From: Aquimarina atlantica
Lineage (GTDB): Bacteria; Bacteroidota; Bacteroidia; Flavobacteriales; Flavobacteriaceae
Direction of reading: 5' to 3'
Length of the DNA: 64,000 nucleotides
NCBI RefSeq assembly: GCF_000626715.1
Contig: NZ_AQRA01000006.1
Coordinates: 1 to 64,000 of the forward strand
In this document: positions 51,598 through 54,708 of the stretch, piece after piece
Position numbering within the stretch: the stretch's first letter is position 1
Layout of the letters: each line of letters opens with the position of its first letter
The notes under the pieces: generated by a model
Told to the model about the DNA's origin: nothing
The model's input: only the letters and a program-made list of their open reading frames with translations
Databases searched by the model: none
Translations under genes and position numbers: made by a program

Positions 51598-52227
51598 ATG
51601 CAAAAGAGTATACAGAAATTGGTGAATGATGGTAAGATGCTTCCTTTGATGGAAGAGTTTTATACTATCCAGGGAGAAGGTTATCACAAAGGAACGGCAG
51701 CATATTTTGTTAGGATAGGTGGTTGTGATGTTGGGTGCCATTGGTGTGATGTAAAAGAAAGTTGGAATGCAGATTTACATCCTCCTACAGATACAAATGT
51801 TATCGTAGAAAATGCACTACAATATAGCGATGTAATTGTGGTTACAGGAGGAGAACCTCTTACCTGGGATATGACTATGTTAACTCAAGGACTTAAAAGC
51901 AAAGGAGCTAAAACTCATATTGAAACATCTGGGGCATATCCTCTGACAGGAGAATGGGACTGGATTTGTCTTTCTCCCAAAAAAGTAAAACTTCCTAAAG
52001 AGGAAGTTTATAAAAAGGCAGATGAGTTAAAATGCATTGTTTATAATAAAAGTGATTTTGAGTTTGCAGAAAGGCAAGCAGACAAGGTTTCTGATCATTG
52101 TGTATTGTATCTTCAACCCGAATGGAGTGTCCGCGAAAAAGTGATTCCTCTGATTGTGGATTATGTTATGAAAAATCCAAAATGGAAAGTTTCTCTTCAA
52201 ACTCATAAATACCTAAATATTCCTTAA
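51598..52227 (+). CDS. queE: 7-carboxy-7-deazaguanine synthase
   Basis: 209 aa, radical SAM. The [4Fe-4S] motif CDVGCHWCDVKESW is C-x3-C-x2-C, and the preceding FYTIQGEGYHKGTAAYFVRI is diagnostic of QueE. VTGGEPLTWD supplies the SAM-binding GGEP. It converts 6-carboxy-5,6,7,8-tetrahydropterin to 7-carboxy-7-deazaguanine, the committed step of queuosine precursor synthesis. Other que genes are not in the window. Confidence 0.95.
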   Translation: MQKSIQKLVNDGKMLPLMEEFYTIQGEGYHKGTAAYFVRIGGCDVGCHWCDVKESWNADLHPPTDTNVIVENALQYSDVIVVTGGEPLTWDMTMLTQGLKSKGAKTHIETSGAYPLTGEWDWICLSPKKVKLPKEEVYKKADELKCIVYNKSDFEFAERQADKVSDHCVLYLQPEWSVREKVIPLIVDYVMKNPKWKVSLQTHKYLNIP

Positions 52228-52370
52228 AAAATTCTATCACTTTGATTCTTAAGGCTTTTTAAATAAAAATACAAGTATTTAATGATTAATGGGTTATGGT
52301 TTTTCCATAATGTTGGGGATAATTCCCCATATTGTATTTTTTATTTTGAAGGAAAAAGACTACATTGTTT

Positions 52371-52478
52371 ATGGTTTTTCAATATTTTATATACTTTTTA
52401 CCCAGCTCTTTAAGTATTTATATCGAAATTATCATTTTTGTTTTACTACTTGTTTTGGTAGTGTTTAAATTTATGTGA
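52371..52478 (+). CDS. Candidate 35-aa hydrophobic ORF upstream of peptide gene 1
   Basis: ATG at 52371 to TGA at 52476: 35 codons, almost wholly hydrophobic (IEIIIFVLLLVLVVFKFM at the end), like a single membrane helix. It ends 21 nt before the first 32-aa peptide ORF and its last codons overlap that gene's -7 region. Upstream are small hairpins (TTATGG-CCATAA near 52294-52310, GGGGA-TCCCC near 52315-52328). It is not clearly related to the 32-aa family. AT-rich chance ORF is possible. Confidence 0.25.
   Translation: MVFQYFIYFLPSSLSIYIEIIIFVLLLVLVVFKFM
52466..52473 (+). promoter_or_regulatory. Near-consensus -7 element of peptide gene 1
   Basis: TAAATTTA differs from TAnnTTTG in the last base. 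It lies 26 nt before the ATG at 52500, the same spacing as in peptide gene 2, and the following AACAATTT resembles the leader of gene 3. Confidence 0.4.
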
Positions 52479-52499
52479 ACAATTTAAAATCAGTTTCTT

Positions 52500-52598
52500 A
52501 TGAAAAATTTTTACACTACATTTGGGTTAACTTTTAGGGCTTTTATCAGTTTTATAAAAGAATTACCAGGGGCATCTCTATATGCTATGCGTAGATAA
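52500..52598 (+). CDS. Tandem 32-aa peptide, copy 1
   Basis: 32 codons and TAA. The peptide starts MKNFYTTFGLTFRAFISF and ends IKELPGASLYAMRR. It aligns without gaps with three other ORFs in this island: 19 of 32 residues match copy 4 and 17 match copy 2. Shared residues are F4, F8, F18, L22-P23, A25 and A29, with a basic last residue. Hydrophobic residues at 4, 8, 12, 15, 18 and 22 fall on one face of an alpha helix. No signal peptide is recognised; the peptide is basic. Family and function are unknown to me. Confidence 0.72.
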   Translation: MKNFYTTFGLTFRAFISFIKELPGASLYAMRR

Positions 52599-52729
52599 CT
52601 ATCGTATAAAATATTATATAAACTTTTTGATTTTGAACGCGAATTTACCTTTCGTCGAATGTAAATGTCGTTTTAATTATTCTTTTAGACCAGCTAACGA
52701 TTTTTTTACTTACCAATGTAAATATGAGA

Positions 52730-52737
52730 TAAATTTG
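52730..52737 (+). promoter_or_regulatory. -7 element of peptide gene 2
   Basis: TAAATTTG matches TAnnTTTG exactly and ends 26 nt before the ATG at 52764. The -33 region has only a weak TTA (52706-52708, spacing 21). Confidence 0.6.
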
Positions 52738-52763
52738 TAACTGTAATTAAAAACCAGACAGTT

Positions 52764-52862
52764 ATGAAATATTTTACCTCTATTTTCGGATTAAGTTTTA
52801 ATGTAGTAATTAATTTTTTAAAAGATCTTCCAGGAGCATCTCAATATGCAATCAATAAATGA
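52764..52862 (+). CDS. Tandem 32-aa peptide, copy 2
   Basis: 32 codons and TGA, 165 nt after copy 1. It begins MKYFTSIFGLSFNVVINF and ends LKDLPGASQYAINK. The core LPGAS is encoded with different codons from copies 1 and 4 (CTT CCA GGA GCA TCT versus TTA CCA GGG GCA TCT), so the amino acids are kept while silent sites drift. A strong hairpin terminator follows at 52915. Function unknown. Confidence 0.72.
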   Translation: MKYFTSIFGLSFNVVINFLKDLPGASQYAINK

Positions 52863-53546
52863 TTATGATGAATGTACTAGTTTATTATCTTCGACCATTT
52901 TATTTATTAGATCCTTAGTAAGAGATTGTTTTGAGAAACAATCTCTTACTAATTTTTATAAGTAAGAAAAATATGATATAGTATATAAGAAAAAGACTAT
53001 ATCTTTTTGATAATAAATGTTCCTTTTTAAAAAATTGTTTTTTTGATTCTGATTAACCAAAAATACTTCATCTTCCCAGTATAATTAATAGTTTCTTAGG
53101 AATTTCAGGTCACTTTTAGTGATCAATTTGTTTTTAAGTTTTTATAAGAATAAACACTACAATTATTTTGATCAATAGACTTCATTATTTTCTCATAGTA
53201 TAACATTCATACTGAAGGAAAAAATATAGAAAAAAGTTATAAAGTATTTAGCATAATTTCCTTATTTGTATTTATAATAAGGAAGGAGTAACAGTATTTC
53301 CAGAATAATATATAAATATAATTGTGCTTTTTGGTTGTTTTGTACGTCTTAAGAAAATTTGATTAAAAAGATATAAAGGAAAAAAGGGGGAGAAAACCCC
53401 TAAAACACAGTTATATTGTGTAGGAAAAAACTCCAAAAATTAACATTCAAAAATCCATTTTTGATATTATAGCGTTTTTTGATGGTTTTACGTCTAAAAT
53501 TTCATTTTATCAAAGTTAATTTTTATTGGTCAAATGGGATAGACAT
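52863..53546. other. Hairpin-rich non-coding stretch between peptide genes 2 and 3
   Basis: About 680 bases without a related peptide ORF on either strand that I can find. It holds several inverted repeats: the terminator at 52915, TTCCTTATT/AATAAGGAA at 53258-53266 with 53276-53284, GGGG-CCCC near 53384-53400, CACA-TGTG near 53406-53420, and TCAAAAA/TTTTTGA at 53447-53464. A small RNA could be encoded here, but no promoter-terminator pair is clear. Confidence 0.45.
52915..52957 (+). terminator. 17-bp perfect terminator hairpin after peptide gene 2
   Basis: TTAGTAAGAGATTGTTT at 52915-52931 pairs fully with 52936-52952 across a TGAG tetraloop, followed by TTTTTA. It closes the copy 2 transcript about 50 nt after its stop codon. 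Confidence 0.88.
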
Positions 53547-53554
53547 TATCTTTG
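53526..53554 (+). promoter_or_regulatory. Promoter of peptide gene 3
   Basis: TTG at 53526-53528, 18-nt spacer, TATCTTTG at 53547-53554: a full match to the Bacteroidota consensus. The gap to the ATG at 53580 is 25 nt. Confidence 0.75.
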
Positions 53555-53579
53555 TATAACAATTTTAAATCAAAAGATG

Positions 53580-53678
53580 ATGAAGCTATTTTACGGTATT
53601 TTTTTTGTTGATATAAAGGCTTTAAAAACCTTTTTAAGACAATTACCATCGGCTTGCAGTAATGCAATCCATAGATAA
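53580..53678 (+). CDS. Tandem 32-aa peptide, copy 3
   Basis: The ATG at 53580 gives exactly 32 codons and aligns without gaps to the other copies; another ATG lies one codon earlier at 53577. The peptide begins MKLFYGIFFVDIKALKTF and ends LRQLPSACSNAIHR. It is the most diverged copy (about 14 of 32 identical to copy 4) but keeps F4, F8, F18, L22-P23, A25, A29 and the terminal Arg. The LPGAS core reads LPSAC, and Cys26 is unique to this copy. A short hairpin (AAAATTG / CAATTTT, 53688-53709) follows. Confidence 0.7.
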   Translation: MKLFYGIFFVDIKALKTFLRQLPSACSNAIHR

Positions 53679-53763
53679 GAATTTTTTAAAATTGTTGAGG
53701 GGCAATTTTGAAAACTAAATGAAACGAAAAAGAATAAGCTTTTGAAAAATTTATGTTAAGGAA

Positions 53764-53790
53764 TTGAGGGAAATTACCCCATTATCCTTG
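53764..53790 (+). promoter_or_regulatory. Fifth promoter-like element in the peptide island
   Basis: TTG at 53764-53766 and TATCCTTG at 53783-53790 (16-nt spacer, one mismatch to TAnnTTTG). CATTATCCTTGTATAA closely copies the promoter of gene 3 (CATTATCTTTGTATAA). It stands 32 nt before a short ORF at 53823. Confidence 0.45.
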
Positions 53791-53822
53791 TATAAAATAA
53801 CAAAGCATTAGGGGGTGGATTT

Positions 53823-53876
53823 ATGAGAACTAAGATTTTAGTGCTTATTATCGATAAAATCTTGATTTATATCTAA
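53823..53876 (+). CDS. Candidate 17-aa ORF, possible diverged unit
   Basis: ATG to TAA, 17 codons: MRTKILVLIIDKILIYI. It is hydrophobic with basic residues near the start. The distance from the -7-like element to the ATG is 32 nt, the same as in peptide gene 4. There is no clear sequence match to the 32-aa family. A 9-bp inverted repeat (AAGATTTTA 53832-53840 with TAAAATCTT 53855-53863) lies within it, so the transcript may instead be a structured RNA. Confidence 0.25.
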   Translation: MRTKILVLIIDKILIYI

Positions 53877-53892
53877 AATATATATAAATTTA

Positions 53893-53923
53893 TTGACATC
53901 GAGTTATATCAGTATTATATTTG
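53893..53923 (+). promoter_or_regulatory. Promoter of peptide gene 4
   Basis: TTG at 53893-53895, 20-nt spacer, TATATTTG at 53916-53923: a full consensus match. The start codon is 32 nt further. Confidence 0.75.
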
Positions 53924-53955
53924 AATAACAATTACATTAATTTTAAACGTAACAT

Positions 53956-54054
53956 ATGGGGCTATTTTACACAAAATTTAGATTAACTTTTAGAATTGTA
54001 ATGGATTTTCTAAAAGAGTTACCTGGGGCATCTGGTCATGCTATTCACAGATAA
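53956..54054 (+). CDS. Tandem 32-aa peptide, copy 4
   Basis: 32 codons and TAA. It begins MGLFYTKFRLTFRIVMDF and ends LKELPGASGHAIHR, combining features of the other copies: FYT-x-F-x-LTFR as in copy 1 and AIHR as in copy 3. It is followed at 54107-54146 by a strong terminator shared with the convergent DUF2911 gene. The independent promoter and terminator argue against it being a leader peptide for a downstream gene. Function unknown. Confidence 0.72.
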   Translation: MGLFYTKFRLTFRIVMDFLKELPGASGHAIHR

Positions 54055-54106
54055 CATAAGAACTTATTATCTCTTTTCGAGATAAAAACAAATACAAAAG
54101 TTGAGG

Positions 54107-54146
54107 AAAAAAATAGCTTGAAAATTTATTTTCAAGCTATTTTTTT
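54107..54146. terminator. Bidirectional terminator between peptide gene 4 and the DUF2911 gene
   Basis: AAATAGCTTGAAAA at 54111-54124 pairs perfectly with TTTTCAAGCTATTT at 54129-54142 (loop TTTA), flanked by A and T tracts on the two sides. Confidence 0.9.
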
Positions 54147-54174
54147 ATGAATTAAATTCTAAATTCTTTGTTTG

Positions 54175-54708
54175 CTATAGATAAAAAGGCACTTCTACAC
54201 GAGTAGTATCCCATCCCATTACCATGTGATATCCTTTATCTACTTTTTTGAAAGCTATAGAGAACACTTCTAATTCATCACCACTTGCAACTGGGACCTT
54301 AATTCTAGCAACATCTTTACTTTTATCATAAGAGTAAGCTCCCCAACTATCTAGATCAGAATTTATAATAATAGTCCATTCTTTTTCTCCCGGGATAGTG
54401 AATAATGAATATGTTCCTGTTTTAATAGCTTTATCTCCCATTTTTACATCCTGAGAAAATCTAATTTCAGTAGCTTCATCAGCGCCAGTTCTCCATACTT
54501 TGTCATACGCAGCTAAGCTACCAAATATTTTACGCCCTTTCTTTTGCGGACGGCTATAGACAACTTTAATCTCTGGTTTGGCATTTCTATCTTTCTTGGC
54601 ATAAGAAATGTCGGTTGGACTTTTCTGTAGTCCTGCAAATTTTTGAGCGTTTACACTTGATAATGTACCCAAAAACATAATAATAACTAATACGAGTGAT
54701 TTTTTCAT
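54175..54708 (-). CDS. DUF2911 family secreted protein
   Basis: 177 aa with a signal peptide (1-21, ending SSVNAQ). The family pattern is clear: KSPTDISYAKKDRNAKPEIK and VVYSRPQKKGRKIFGSLAAY, KVWRTGADEATEIRFSQDV, GTYSLFTIPGEKEWTIIINS and WGAYSYDKSKDVARIKVPV. DUF2911 proteins are abundant in Bacteroidota and of unknown role. It points toward the peptide island and shares its terminator with copy 4. Confidence 0.88.
   Translation of the reverse strand: MKKSLVLVIIMFLGTLSSVNAQKFAGLQKSPTDISYAKKDRNAKPEIKVVYSRPQKKGRKIFGSLAAYDKVWRTGADEATEIRFSQDVKMGDKAIKTGTYSLFTIPGEKEWTIIINSDLDSWGAYSYDKSKDVARIKVPVASGDELEVFSIAFKKVDKGYHMVMGWDTTRVEVPFYL

What the first reader, a model, noticed from the sequence alone, without database searches (positions are those of the whole stretch)
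52500..54054. Island of four tandem, unannotated 32-aa peptide genes of one family
A stretch of almost 2 kb that would be called intergenic holds four ORFs of exactly 32 codons, all on the plus strand (52500, 52764, 53580, 53956). They align end to end without gaps. M1, F4, F8, F18, L22, P23, A25 and A29 are identical in all, position 20 is K/R and position 32 is R/K. The core is ELPGAS or a variant. Silent codon differences within the core (CTT/TTA, CCA/CCT, GGA/GGG, GCA/GCT) show that the protein, not the DNA, is conserved. Hydrophobic residues at 4, 8, 12, 15, 18 and 22 lie on one helix face. I do not know such a family. Hypotheses: type I toxin-like membrane peptides (which also occur as tandem copies), secreted signal peptides, or membrane-active peptides.
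Basis: partly seen in the sequence, partly recalled or inferred. Interest (0 to 1): 0.92.

Follow-up and report, generated by a model that had tools for sequence, protein, structure and literature searches.

The report
Small-peptide gene family of flavobacteria
Four tiny genes in a gap between ordinary genes belong to a real, strongly conserved family of roughly 32-residue helical peptides, found in several copies per genome in most Aquimarina sampled and more sparsely in other flavobacteria; what they do is unknown, but they look more like stand-alone regulatory peptides than toxins.

Summary
In detail: four 32-codon ORFs lie between queE and a DUF2911-like gene. They are one locus of a larger family. 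This genome has three more clear copies; 20 of 21 same-genus genomes searched (Aquimarina, from named relatives) have 1-15 matches. Selection is on the protein (dN/dS 0.07-0.26). Relatives in other Flavobacteriaceae genera differ at the N-terminus but are of like length and end A-[S/C]-x-Y-A-I-H-R at the stop codon. Pfam, NCBIfam, PHROGs, PDB sequences and plasmids gave no credible match. The family-average profile is one cationic amphipathic helix without a transmembrane-like stretch. About half the copies have a consensus -7 element; no antisense promoter or constant neighbour was found. A type I toxin is not supported, though not excluded. ORF1, ORF3 and ORF4 share a ~190-bp upstream module found at these places only, and ORF4-class genes fix rare codons at positions 2, 3 and 5, so nucleotides matter too. 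Best reading: stand-alone regulatory microproteins whose helix lies on the membrane or a partner and whose fixed C-terminus docks. Partner unknown; no expression data.

The parts
52500..52598 (+). ORF1, 32-aa peptide MKNFYTTFGLTFRAFISFIKELPGASLYAMRR
   Evidence: orthologues in the same gene gap of relatives; dN/dS 0.24 for the class
52764..52862 (+). ORF2, 32-aa peptide MKYFTSIFGLSFNVVINFLKDLPGASQYAINK; no upstream module
   Evidence: dN/dS 0.26 for the class; no strong module hit upstream; absent in L054, remnant with a stop in G019
53580..53678 (+). ORF3, 32-aa peptide MKLFYGIFFVDIKALKTFLRQLPSACSNAIHR
   Evidence: dN/dS 0.10 for the class
53956..54054 (+). ORF4, 32-aa peptide MGLFYTKFRLTFRIVMDFLKELPGASGHAIHR; the most conserved class
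   Evidence: dN/dS 0.07 over 38 sequences; codons 2, 3 and 5 nearly fixed rare codons
52466..52473 (+). -7-like element of ORF1 (TAAATTTA, one base off TAnnTTTG)
   Evidence: position enriched family-wide
52730..52737 (+). -7 element of ORF2 (TAAATTTG)
53547..53554 (+). -7 element of ORF3 (TATCTTTG)
53893..53923 (+). promoter-like site of ORF4 (TTGACA ... TATATTTG)
52313..52433 (+). upstream module of ORF1; palindrome GGGGATAATTCCCC at 52315-52328
   Evidence: (E 6e-10)
53386..53503 (+). upstream module of ORF3; palindrome GGGGAGAAAACCCC at 53387-53400, TCTAAAA at 53493-53499
   Evidence: (E 6e-18)
53766..53882 (+). upstream module of ORF4; AGGGAAATTACCCC at 53767-53780, TATCTAAA at 53870-53877
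   Evidence: (E 1e-12)
52915..52952 (+). terminator-like hairpin after ORF2 (17 pairs, then T run)
54107..54146 (.). inverted repeat after ORF4 (arms 54107-54125 and 54128-54146, fully complementary, 2 nt between), terminator-like by eye
   Evidence: not listed by the scan, which asks for a loop of 3-8; terminator-like hairpins follow 37 of 42 ORF4-class genes

Best explanation
The four ORFs are members of a Flavobacteriaceae family of stand-alone microproteins. Shown: they are protein-coding by their pattern of change, under strong purifying selection, mostly 32 residues long, with a fixed C-terminal motif at the stop codon, about half with a consensus -7 promoter element (ORF4 class mostly with a terminator-like hairpin), and in Aquimarina multiplied into a conserved tandem island plus scattered copies. 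Inferred: each is a cationic amphipathic helix that works inside the cell, lying on the inner membrane or on a partner. The conserved C-terminal half (L22-P/A23-x-A25-[S/C]26-x-[Y/N/H]28-A29-[I/M]30-[H/R]31-[R/K]32-COOH) docks on a target shared by the family. Paralogues under different promoters put the same kind of regulator under different signals. The partner and the process are unknown.
For: Selection: dN/dS 0.07-0.26 with the start codon kept. One syntenic spot across the genus, and several scattered copies at shared positions in different species (by reading). Same C-terminus with divergent N-terminus in other genera. DNA pattern for A-x-x-[Y/H]-A-I-H-R-stop: 22 matches in 17 of 249 family genomes, none for the reversed pattern; 21 of the 22 (16 genomes, 2 of them the own genus) end short ORFs of this kind. 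Helix: family-average periodicity at 100 degrees, AlphaFold helix 2-31. Separate units: -7 element in 83 of 163 upstream regions against 6.4 in shuffles; terminator-like hairpins in 64 of 160 against 1 shuffled.
Against: No evidence of expression, location or partner. Taken singly, only 64 of 135 Aquimarina peptides and 2 of 18 from other genera are more amphipathic than shuffles at p<=0.05. The AlphaFold model is moderate (pLDDT 74, pTM 0.32). Single paralogues are dispensable: ORF2 is missing in L054 and is a remnant with a stop in G019; ORF4 was not seen in L036 and L038. Most sampled family genomes had no match (388 of 397, 383 of 397, 232 of 249), so the target would have to work without the peptide there. 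Only 3 of 49 ORF3-class genes have a terminator-like hairpin, so not all units are clearly separate. In the other genera, 4 of 19 copies have a same-strand gene within 150 nt downstream, and peptidase genes (S41, M28) recur near copies in 3 regions each. The nucleotide constraint at the start of the ORF is not explained by this reading.
Confidence: 0.4

Rival explanations
1. Secreted leaderless amphipathic peptides that act as surfactants or membrane-active weapons, working like phenol-soluble modulins (surface spreading, killing competitors).
For: Cationic helices of the right size, amphipathic in the family average; tandem copies; no signal peptide needed for that class (recalled).
Against: The fixed C-terminus and very low dN/dS of the ORF4 class are not needed for a surfactant and would be unusual for a weapon; I noticed no transporter gene constantly beside the copies, but neighbours were mostly read from translations and only 10 were tested with Pfam.
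Confidence: 0.15
2. Precursors of short signalling or modified peptides in which the C-terminal 7-11 residues are the mature product.
For: Variable N-terminal half, conserved C-terminus at the stop codon; S41 and M28 peptidase genes near copies in 3 of 15 regions each in other genera.
Against: No maturation or export gene seen constantly beside the copies; the C-terminus is nearly the same across genera, where signalling peptides usually diversify (recalled); residues 28 and 31 change between paralogues.
Confidence: 0.12
3. Type I toxins: small membrane toxins held down by an RNA antitoxin.
For: Short amphipathic peptides in tandem and scattered copies in gene gaps; amphipathic type I toxins exist (PMC8309996, passages seen).
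Against: Best 18-residue hydropathy averages 0.88 and none of 135 reaches 1.6; antisense promoter over ORF and 150 nt of 3' flank in 1 of 169 regions against 5 of 169 in one shuffle, -7 element alone 17 against 25. A divergent promoter upstream is found in 6 of 163 against a shuffle mean of 2.0, a small excess that I cannot use either way. Strong vertical conservation of one class through a genus would be unusual (recalled).
Confidence: 0.1
4. Dual-function RNAs: the transcript carries an RNA-level function besides the peptide.
For: In the ORF4 class the rare codons GGG (39/39, genome 0.13), CTA (37/38, 0.12) and TAC (39/39, 0.19) are nearly fixed; TTTTAC lies in the first 24 nt in 39 of 39 ORF4, 42 of 49 ORF3 and 5 of 9 ORF2-like genes, in the last one base earlier and out of register; a hairpin in the 3' flank of ORF4, by eye.
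Against: TTTTAC is in only 29 of 64 other members, and the three scattered copies of this genome lack it; no covariation in the upstream module (0 of 6 pairs); no Rfam match at gathering score in 52000-54300.
Confidence: 0.1
5. Cis-acting leader or arrest peptides that control a following gene.
For: Conserved C-terminus right at the stop codon; in other genera 4 of 19 copies have a same-strand gene within 150 nt downstream (L190 first copy, L194, L202, L203).
Against: ORF4 is followed by a terminator-like hairpin and a gene on the other strand; in other genera the next gene downstream is on the opposite strand for 10 of 19 copies; neighbours differ in kind.
Confidence: 0.04

Closest known systems
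Phenol-soluble modulins of staphylococci
   Same: short, leaderless, amphipathic, often in tandem copies (recalled)
   Different: no sequence relation shown or tested directly; here the C-terminus is fixed and no dedicated exporter was noticed
SpoVM and similar small amphipathic membrane-surface proteins
   Same: size, a cationic amphipathic helix, conservation over a lineage (recalled)
   Different: different phylum; not compared directly by sequence; several copies per genome here
Membrane-associated type I toxins (TisB, Fst/Ldr, Zor)
   Same: size, tandem or scattered copies in gene gaps
   Different: no membrane-span-like stretch, no antisense promoter, strong vertical conservation
Phr/PapR-type signalling peptides
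   Same: small protein with a conserved C-terminal stretch (recalled)
   Different: no receptor or exporter gene noticed alongside; C-terminus hardly diversified between genera

Membership tests
membrane-associated type I toxin-antitoxin | hydrophobic helical transmembrane segment in the toxin | tested here: not met
   0 of 135 Aquimarina peptides and 0 of 18 from other genera reach a mean Kyte-Doolittle value of 1.6 over 18 residues; feature from passages of PMC8309996; the threshold is a recalled rule of thumb
membrane-associated type I toxin-antitoxin | cis-encoded antisense RNA over the toxin gene | tested here: not met
   consensus antisense promoter in 1 of 169 regions against 5 of 169 in one shuffle; sequence consensus only, no RNA data
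membrane-associated type I toxin-antitoxin | trans-encoded or divergent antitoxin RNA nearby | tested here: inconclusive
   divergent promoter-like sites in 6 of 163 upstream regions, shuffle mean 2.0
membrane-associated type I toxin-antitoxin | toxicity on overexpression | not testable with these tools
   needs an experiment
phenol-soluble modulins | amphipathic helix without signal peptide | tested here: met
   family average, helix; but singly only 64 of 135 and 2 of 18 beat shuffles; lack of a signal peptide judged by eye
phenol-soluble modulins | export and surfactant or lytic activity | not testable with these tools
   needs an experiment
cis-acting leader peptide | a regulated gene directly downstream on the same strand | tested here: not met
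   not met for ORF4, which faces a gene on the other strand, nor for 10 of 19 copies in other genera; 4 of 19 do have a same-strand gene within 150 nt
modified (RiPP) or signalling peptide precursor | maturation, export or receptor genes linked to the precursor | tested here: inconclusive
   none seen constantly at 18 regions with scattered copies (by reading) or in 10 Pfam-scanned neighbours, but S41 and M28 peptidases recur near copies in 3 of 15 regions each
any curated protein family | match to Pfam, NCBIfam or PHROGs | tested here: not met
   best E 0.014, none near a curated cut-off shown; PHROGs scanned with the Aquimarina type only

The most novel reading that the evidence does not exclude
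A previously undescribed class of peptide regulators in Flavobacteriaceae: short helices with an almost invariant C-terminal code (ASSYAIHR in most of the other-genera copies found by the pattern search, diversified into paralogue versions in Aquimarina) read by an unknown conserved receptor, with the Aquimarina island under a compact multi-site control region and a second, nucleotide-level signal written into the first codons.
Probability: 0.3. Interest if true: 0.85.

Novelty: new variant of a known kind. Interest (0 to 1): 0.62.

Why it matters
A family present in nearly every Aquimarina genome sampled, with up to 15 matches per genome, and reaching other genera, matched no curated protein library tested. 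Its conservation (dN/dS 0.07 for one class) says that the peptide matters to the cell. The near-invariant C-terminal eight residues are a ready bait for finding the partner, and the short length makes synthetic-peptide tests cheap. Whether a specialist database of small proteins already holds it I could not check.

Tried and rejected
Wider taxa: the class samples gave nothing credible outside Flavobacteriaceae. Of the weak matches in G024, G846, G819, G1038 and G1076 (E 4e-4 to 0.01) only that of G024 was looked at: the frame runs 12 residues past the motif and overlaps a 294-aa reading frame. The two pattern matches outside the family end frames of 19 and 11 codons without an ATG. Of the weak family-sample matches, L158 was translated and does not end in the motif, L156 has the motif-like stretch inside a longer frame without an ATG, and L154 and L155 lie in frames of 329 and 259 aa and were not looked at further. 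G102 has a stop inside.

Type I toxin, leader peptide, antisense RNA and structured-RNA readings were tested and not supported. The upstream palindrome as an RNA hairpin got no covariation; it could still be a weak terminator of the gene before it, since the simple scan flags two of the three, but its fixed distance to the following ATG speaks for belonging to the downstream gene. The sigma-70 scan showed no excess in the gap (14 sites, shuffle mean 16.0), as expected for a genus with another promoter type (recalled). Complementarity between the upstream module and the ORF start was looked at by eye only. Genes recurring near other-genera copies (S41 peptidase, M28 peptidase, NT5C nucleotidase, a small lipoprotein-like gene and others, each in 2-4 of 15 regions) were not taken as a functional link, because related genomes share gene order and orientation varies; this is a judgement, not a test.

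Rows dropped: and 23 hits without an in-frame ATG 24-40 codons before the stop, and duplicates; members that are not 32 aa, and identical DNA;-38 members with under 260 bases upstream; in A5 43 of the 72 non-redundant modules were used; 15 modules of the ORF4 class; in A7 only 32-residue members; one row of the other-genera set with wrong coordinates. One search found nothing because my search expression was wrong and was repeated. The shuffles keep base composition only.
Full report
What is there. The gap between queE (ends 52227) and a DUF2911-like gene on the other strand (54175-54708; both names are my reading of the translations) holds four plus-strand ORFs of exactly 32 codons at 52500, 52764, 53580 and 53956. 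They align without gaps, with M1, F4, F8, F18, L22, P23, A25 and A29 identical. A single-sequence search with ORF1 over the 5.7-Mb genome finds ORF2 and ORF4 at E about 3-4e-6 and copies on C1 and C10. The four-row profile gives a third scattered copy at E 3e-10, and the next match has E 0.07. The genome thus has seven clear copies: the four here, C1:56337-56432, C10:202803-202898 and C6:357591-357686 (minus).

The family in the genus. In 36 genomes drawn as relatives, 22 had a match at E<=0.1. Among the 21 same-genus genomes (own included) 20 had 1-15 matches; the one without is 55% complete. Two further same-genus genomes in the family sample had 5 and 3. Named loci show the genus: 38 of 39 loci come from records titled Aquimarina, one from a record titled Bacteroidia bacterium. 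Collected loci gave 127 distinct peptides, 121 of them of 32 residues; the others have 28 (3), 35 (2) and 26 (1, probably chance). In the 121, M1, F18, L22 and P23 are invariant, A25 is 118, residue 26 is S or C in all, A29 is 111, and residue 32 is R or K in 109. The island between queE and the DUF2911-like gene is syntenic in the loci long enough to show it, with from one (L037, L075) to six (L087) copies listed by my filters, which drop duplicates. Where an ORF4-class gene is listed it is the copy nearest the DUF2911-like gene; L036 and L038 list none. ORF2 is expendable: it is missing in L054 and a remnant with a TAG lies in G019.

Selection. Nei-Gojobori estimates with Jukes-Cantor correction of the means give dN/dS of 0.07 (ORF4 class, 38 sequences), 0.10 (ORF3, 39), 0.24 (ORF1, 12) and 0.26 (ORF2, 8). 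Among pairs with moderate synonymous divergence the medians are 0.07, 0.15, 0.25 and 0.25. The ORF3 mean rests on high synonymous divergence (pS 0.62) and is rough. The protein is what is kept.

A second layer of constraint. In the ORF4 class, codon 2 is GGG in 39 of 39 (genome frequency 0.13), codon 3 CTA in 37 of 38 (0.12) and codon 5 TAC in 39 of 39 (0.19). Most later codons vary, though R9 (AGA 37/37, 0.48) and L10 (TTA 36/37, 0.42) are also nearly fixed. Across subfamilies the Tyr-5 codon is TAC in 125 of 129 ('genome' frequencies are from long reading frames of the window). TTTTAC occurs in the first 24 nt of 39/39 ORF4, 42/49 ORF3, 5/9 ORF2-like and 29/64 other members, in the ORF2-like ones one base earlier, out of register with the codons. 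I cannot explain this; it points to a nucleotide-level signal at the start of many island genes.

Control region. Upstream of the collected genes (163 regions, mostly island copies) lie elements at fixed distances from the ATG: GGGG-N6-CCCC near -195 (83 of 163 with at most one mismatch, 82 of them starting at -200 to -171, against 1 of 163 shuffled), GTAGG near -165, GTCG/ATCGAT near -110, TCTAAAA near -95, and the -7 element TAnnTTTG near -35 (83 of 163 against a shuffle mean of 6.4; the full two-part promoter in the last 80 nt 41 of 163 against 1.65). A sequence model of this module finds in the own genome the places upstream of ORF1, ORF3 and ORF4 (E 6e-10, 6e-18, 1e-12), then a drop to 1e-3 (150 of 11116 first-look candidates were scored). 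The model was trained on these three places too, so their scores are partly by construction; the point is that no other scored place comes near, and that ORF2 has none. The three scattered copies of this genome lack the palindrome (by eye). In 15 sequences of the ORF4-class module 0 of 6 predicted pairs show a double change, so a DNA control region is likelier than an RNA. Terminator-like hairpins follow 37 of 42 ORF4-class, 3 of 49 ORF3-class and 24 of 69 other genes, in all 64 of 160 against 1 shuffled. So not every member ends in a terminator of its own.

Other genera. Profile searches in 397 family genomes gave 9 genomes with the full profile at E<=0.001 (three are the own genus, one match holds a stop) and 14 with the C-terminal profile at E<=0.01 (three own genus, several weak ones chance). 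In one other genus 11 of 12 genomes have a match, one genome two; one of the 11 (G773) is a C-terminal piece without an ATG. In the four loci of that genus whose neighbours I read it lies beside what I read as rplU. Members outside Aquimarina differ at the N-terminus but end alike. A DNA pattern for A-x-x-[Y/H]-A-I-H-R-stop gave 22 matches in 17 of 249 family genomes and none with the reversed pattern. 21 of the 22, in 16 genomes (two of the own genus), end short ORFs of this kind; the other has no stop there. In the 109-genome class sample two further genomes matched, neither in such an ORF. Since those copies were chosen by the pattern, their C-terminal identity is partly by construction; independent support is Ser-27 (free in the pattern) and L19 in all 18 aligned, and an ATG giving exactly 32 codons in 13 of the 18 (in the rest 33-40). 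The A7 alignment of both types has no gaps, but I put only 32-residue members into it.

Shape. The average hydrophobicity profile of 135 Aquimarina peptides peaks at 100 degrees per residue over the whole length (8 of 2000 shuffles as strong for residues 2-32). AlphaFold gives one helix, 2-31 (pLDDT 74, pTM 0.32). Net charge averages +3.4 (range -1 to +9), and no 18-residue stretch reaches a mean hydropathy of 1.6. Singly, 64 of 135 peptides, and 2 of 18 from other genera, beat shuffles at p<=0.05, so the amphipathic reading rests on the family average and is weak for the other genera. The set of 135 includes the few members collected from other genera that fit the same expression.

Neighbours. 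Of 20 regions fetched around scattered matches in six genomes, 18 show the peptide by my expression; genes on either side differ, and several positions are shared between species (by reading; no clustering was run there). For the other genera 15 regions with 19 copies were read: the next gene downstream is on the opposite strand for 10 of 19 copies and on the same strand within 150 nt for 4 of 19; similar genes recur in 3-4 regions. Ten neighbours scanned with Pfam gave peptidases S41 and M28, NT5C twice, a haem peroxidase, an amine oxidoreductase, DUF6090 and three without a match. By the clusters the S41 and the M28 type each lie near copies in three regions. I see no constant partner, but a link to the peptidases is not excluded.

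Known families. No match near a cut-off in Pfam, NCBIfam (12, 58) or PHROGs (45, Aquimarina type only); PDB sequences gave only chance-level matches (best E 0.5); BFVD structures none (86); plasmids none (47) and phages one at E 10 (48), both with ORF4 alone; Rfam nothing at gathering score in 52000-54300 (13). Viral contigs were not searched. Papers: the searches listed nothing on this family, judged from titles and the starts of abstracts; the strings SSYAIHR, ASSYAIHR, SYAIHR and ACSYAIHR occur in no held paper. I saw passages of PMC8309996 and PMC11118758; the latter reports RiPP potential in Aquimarina and Kordia, and the passages seen do not describe this peptide. Whether public annotations or small-protein catalogues already hold some copies I could not check.

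Mechanism. The best reading is a stand-alone regulatory microprotein with the C-terminal half as docking end. Coding, selection, family, syntenic island, promoter-like elements and the shared C-terminus are shown; helix shape is predicted; membrane or partner binding, intracellular site and regulatory role are inferred. Rivals are secreted amphipathic peptides, signalling precursors, type I toxins and dual-function RNA, in that order of standing with me; a leader peptide is contradicted for ORF4 and unlikely for the rest.

Noticed in passing
window 53956-53970 and orthologues: The first 15 nt of ORF4 (ATGGGGCTATTTTAC) hardly vary although they use rare codons; the shared TTTTAC sits one base out of register in ORF2.
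   Followed up: partly
window 54054-54107 and orthologues: The 3' flank of ORF4 seems to hold a small hairpin (TTATCTC...GAGATAA here) whose arms appear to change together between species, before the terminator-like hairpin; seen by eye, not counted.
   Followed up: no
L038 1109-1590: One genome (G012) has three 28-residue copies in tandem, ending ...KELPGASQR (two) or ...KELPGAANR, shorter at the C-terminus than the others seen.
   Followed up: no
L133 2998-6894, L143 2998-3290, L101: A 28-residue subfamily (for example MKPFRINFKFIREFLKELPSACSHAIHR), in part as close pairs, at scattered sites.
   Followed up: no
L161 and G019:C1:2164141-2164188: Apparent decayed copies carrying a stop codon, suggesting that single paralogues get lost.
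   Followed up: no
L189, L190, L191, L192: Four genomes of other genera carry two copies each, about 4-8 kb apart, with genes between them.
   Followed up: partly
L189, L191, L195 (S41) and L190, L191, L194 (M28): Peptidase genes recur near copies of the peptide in other genera; in L194 the M28 gene starts 148 nt downstream on the same strand.
   Followed up: partly
window 52289-52309 and 52364-52384: A 21-nt direct repeat (ATGGGTTATGGTTTTTCCATA, 86% alike) upstream of ORF1; its first copy looks like a further palindrome that recurs in the ORF1 class of relatives.
   Followed up: no
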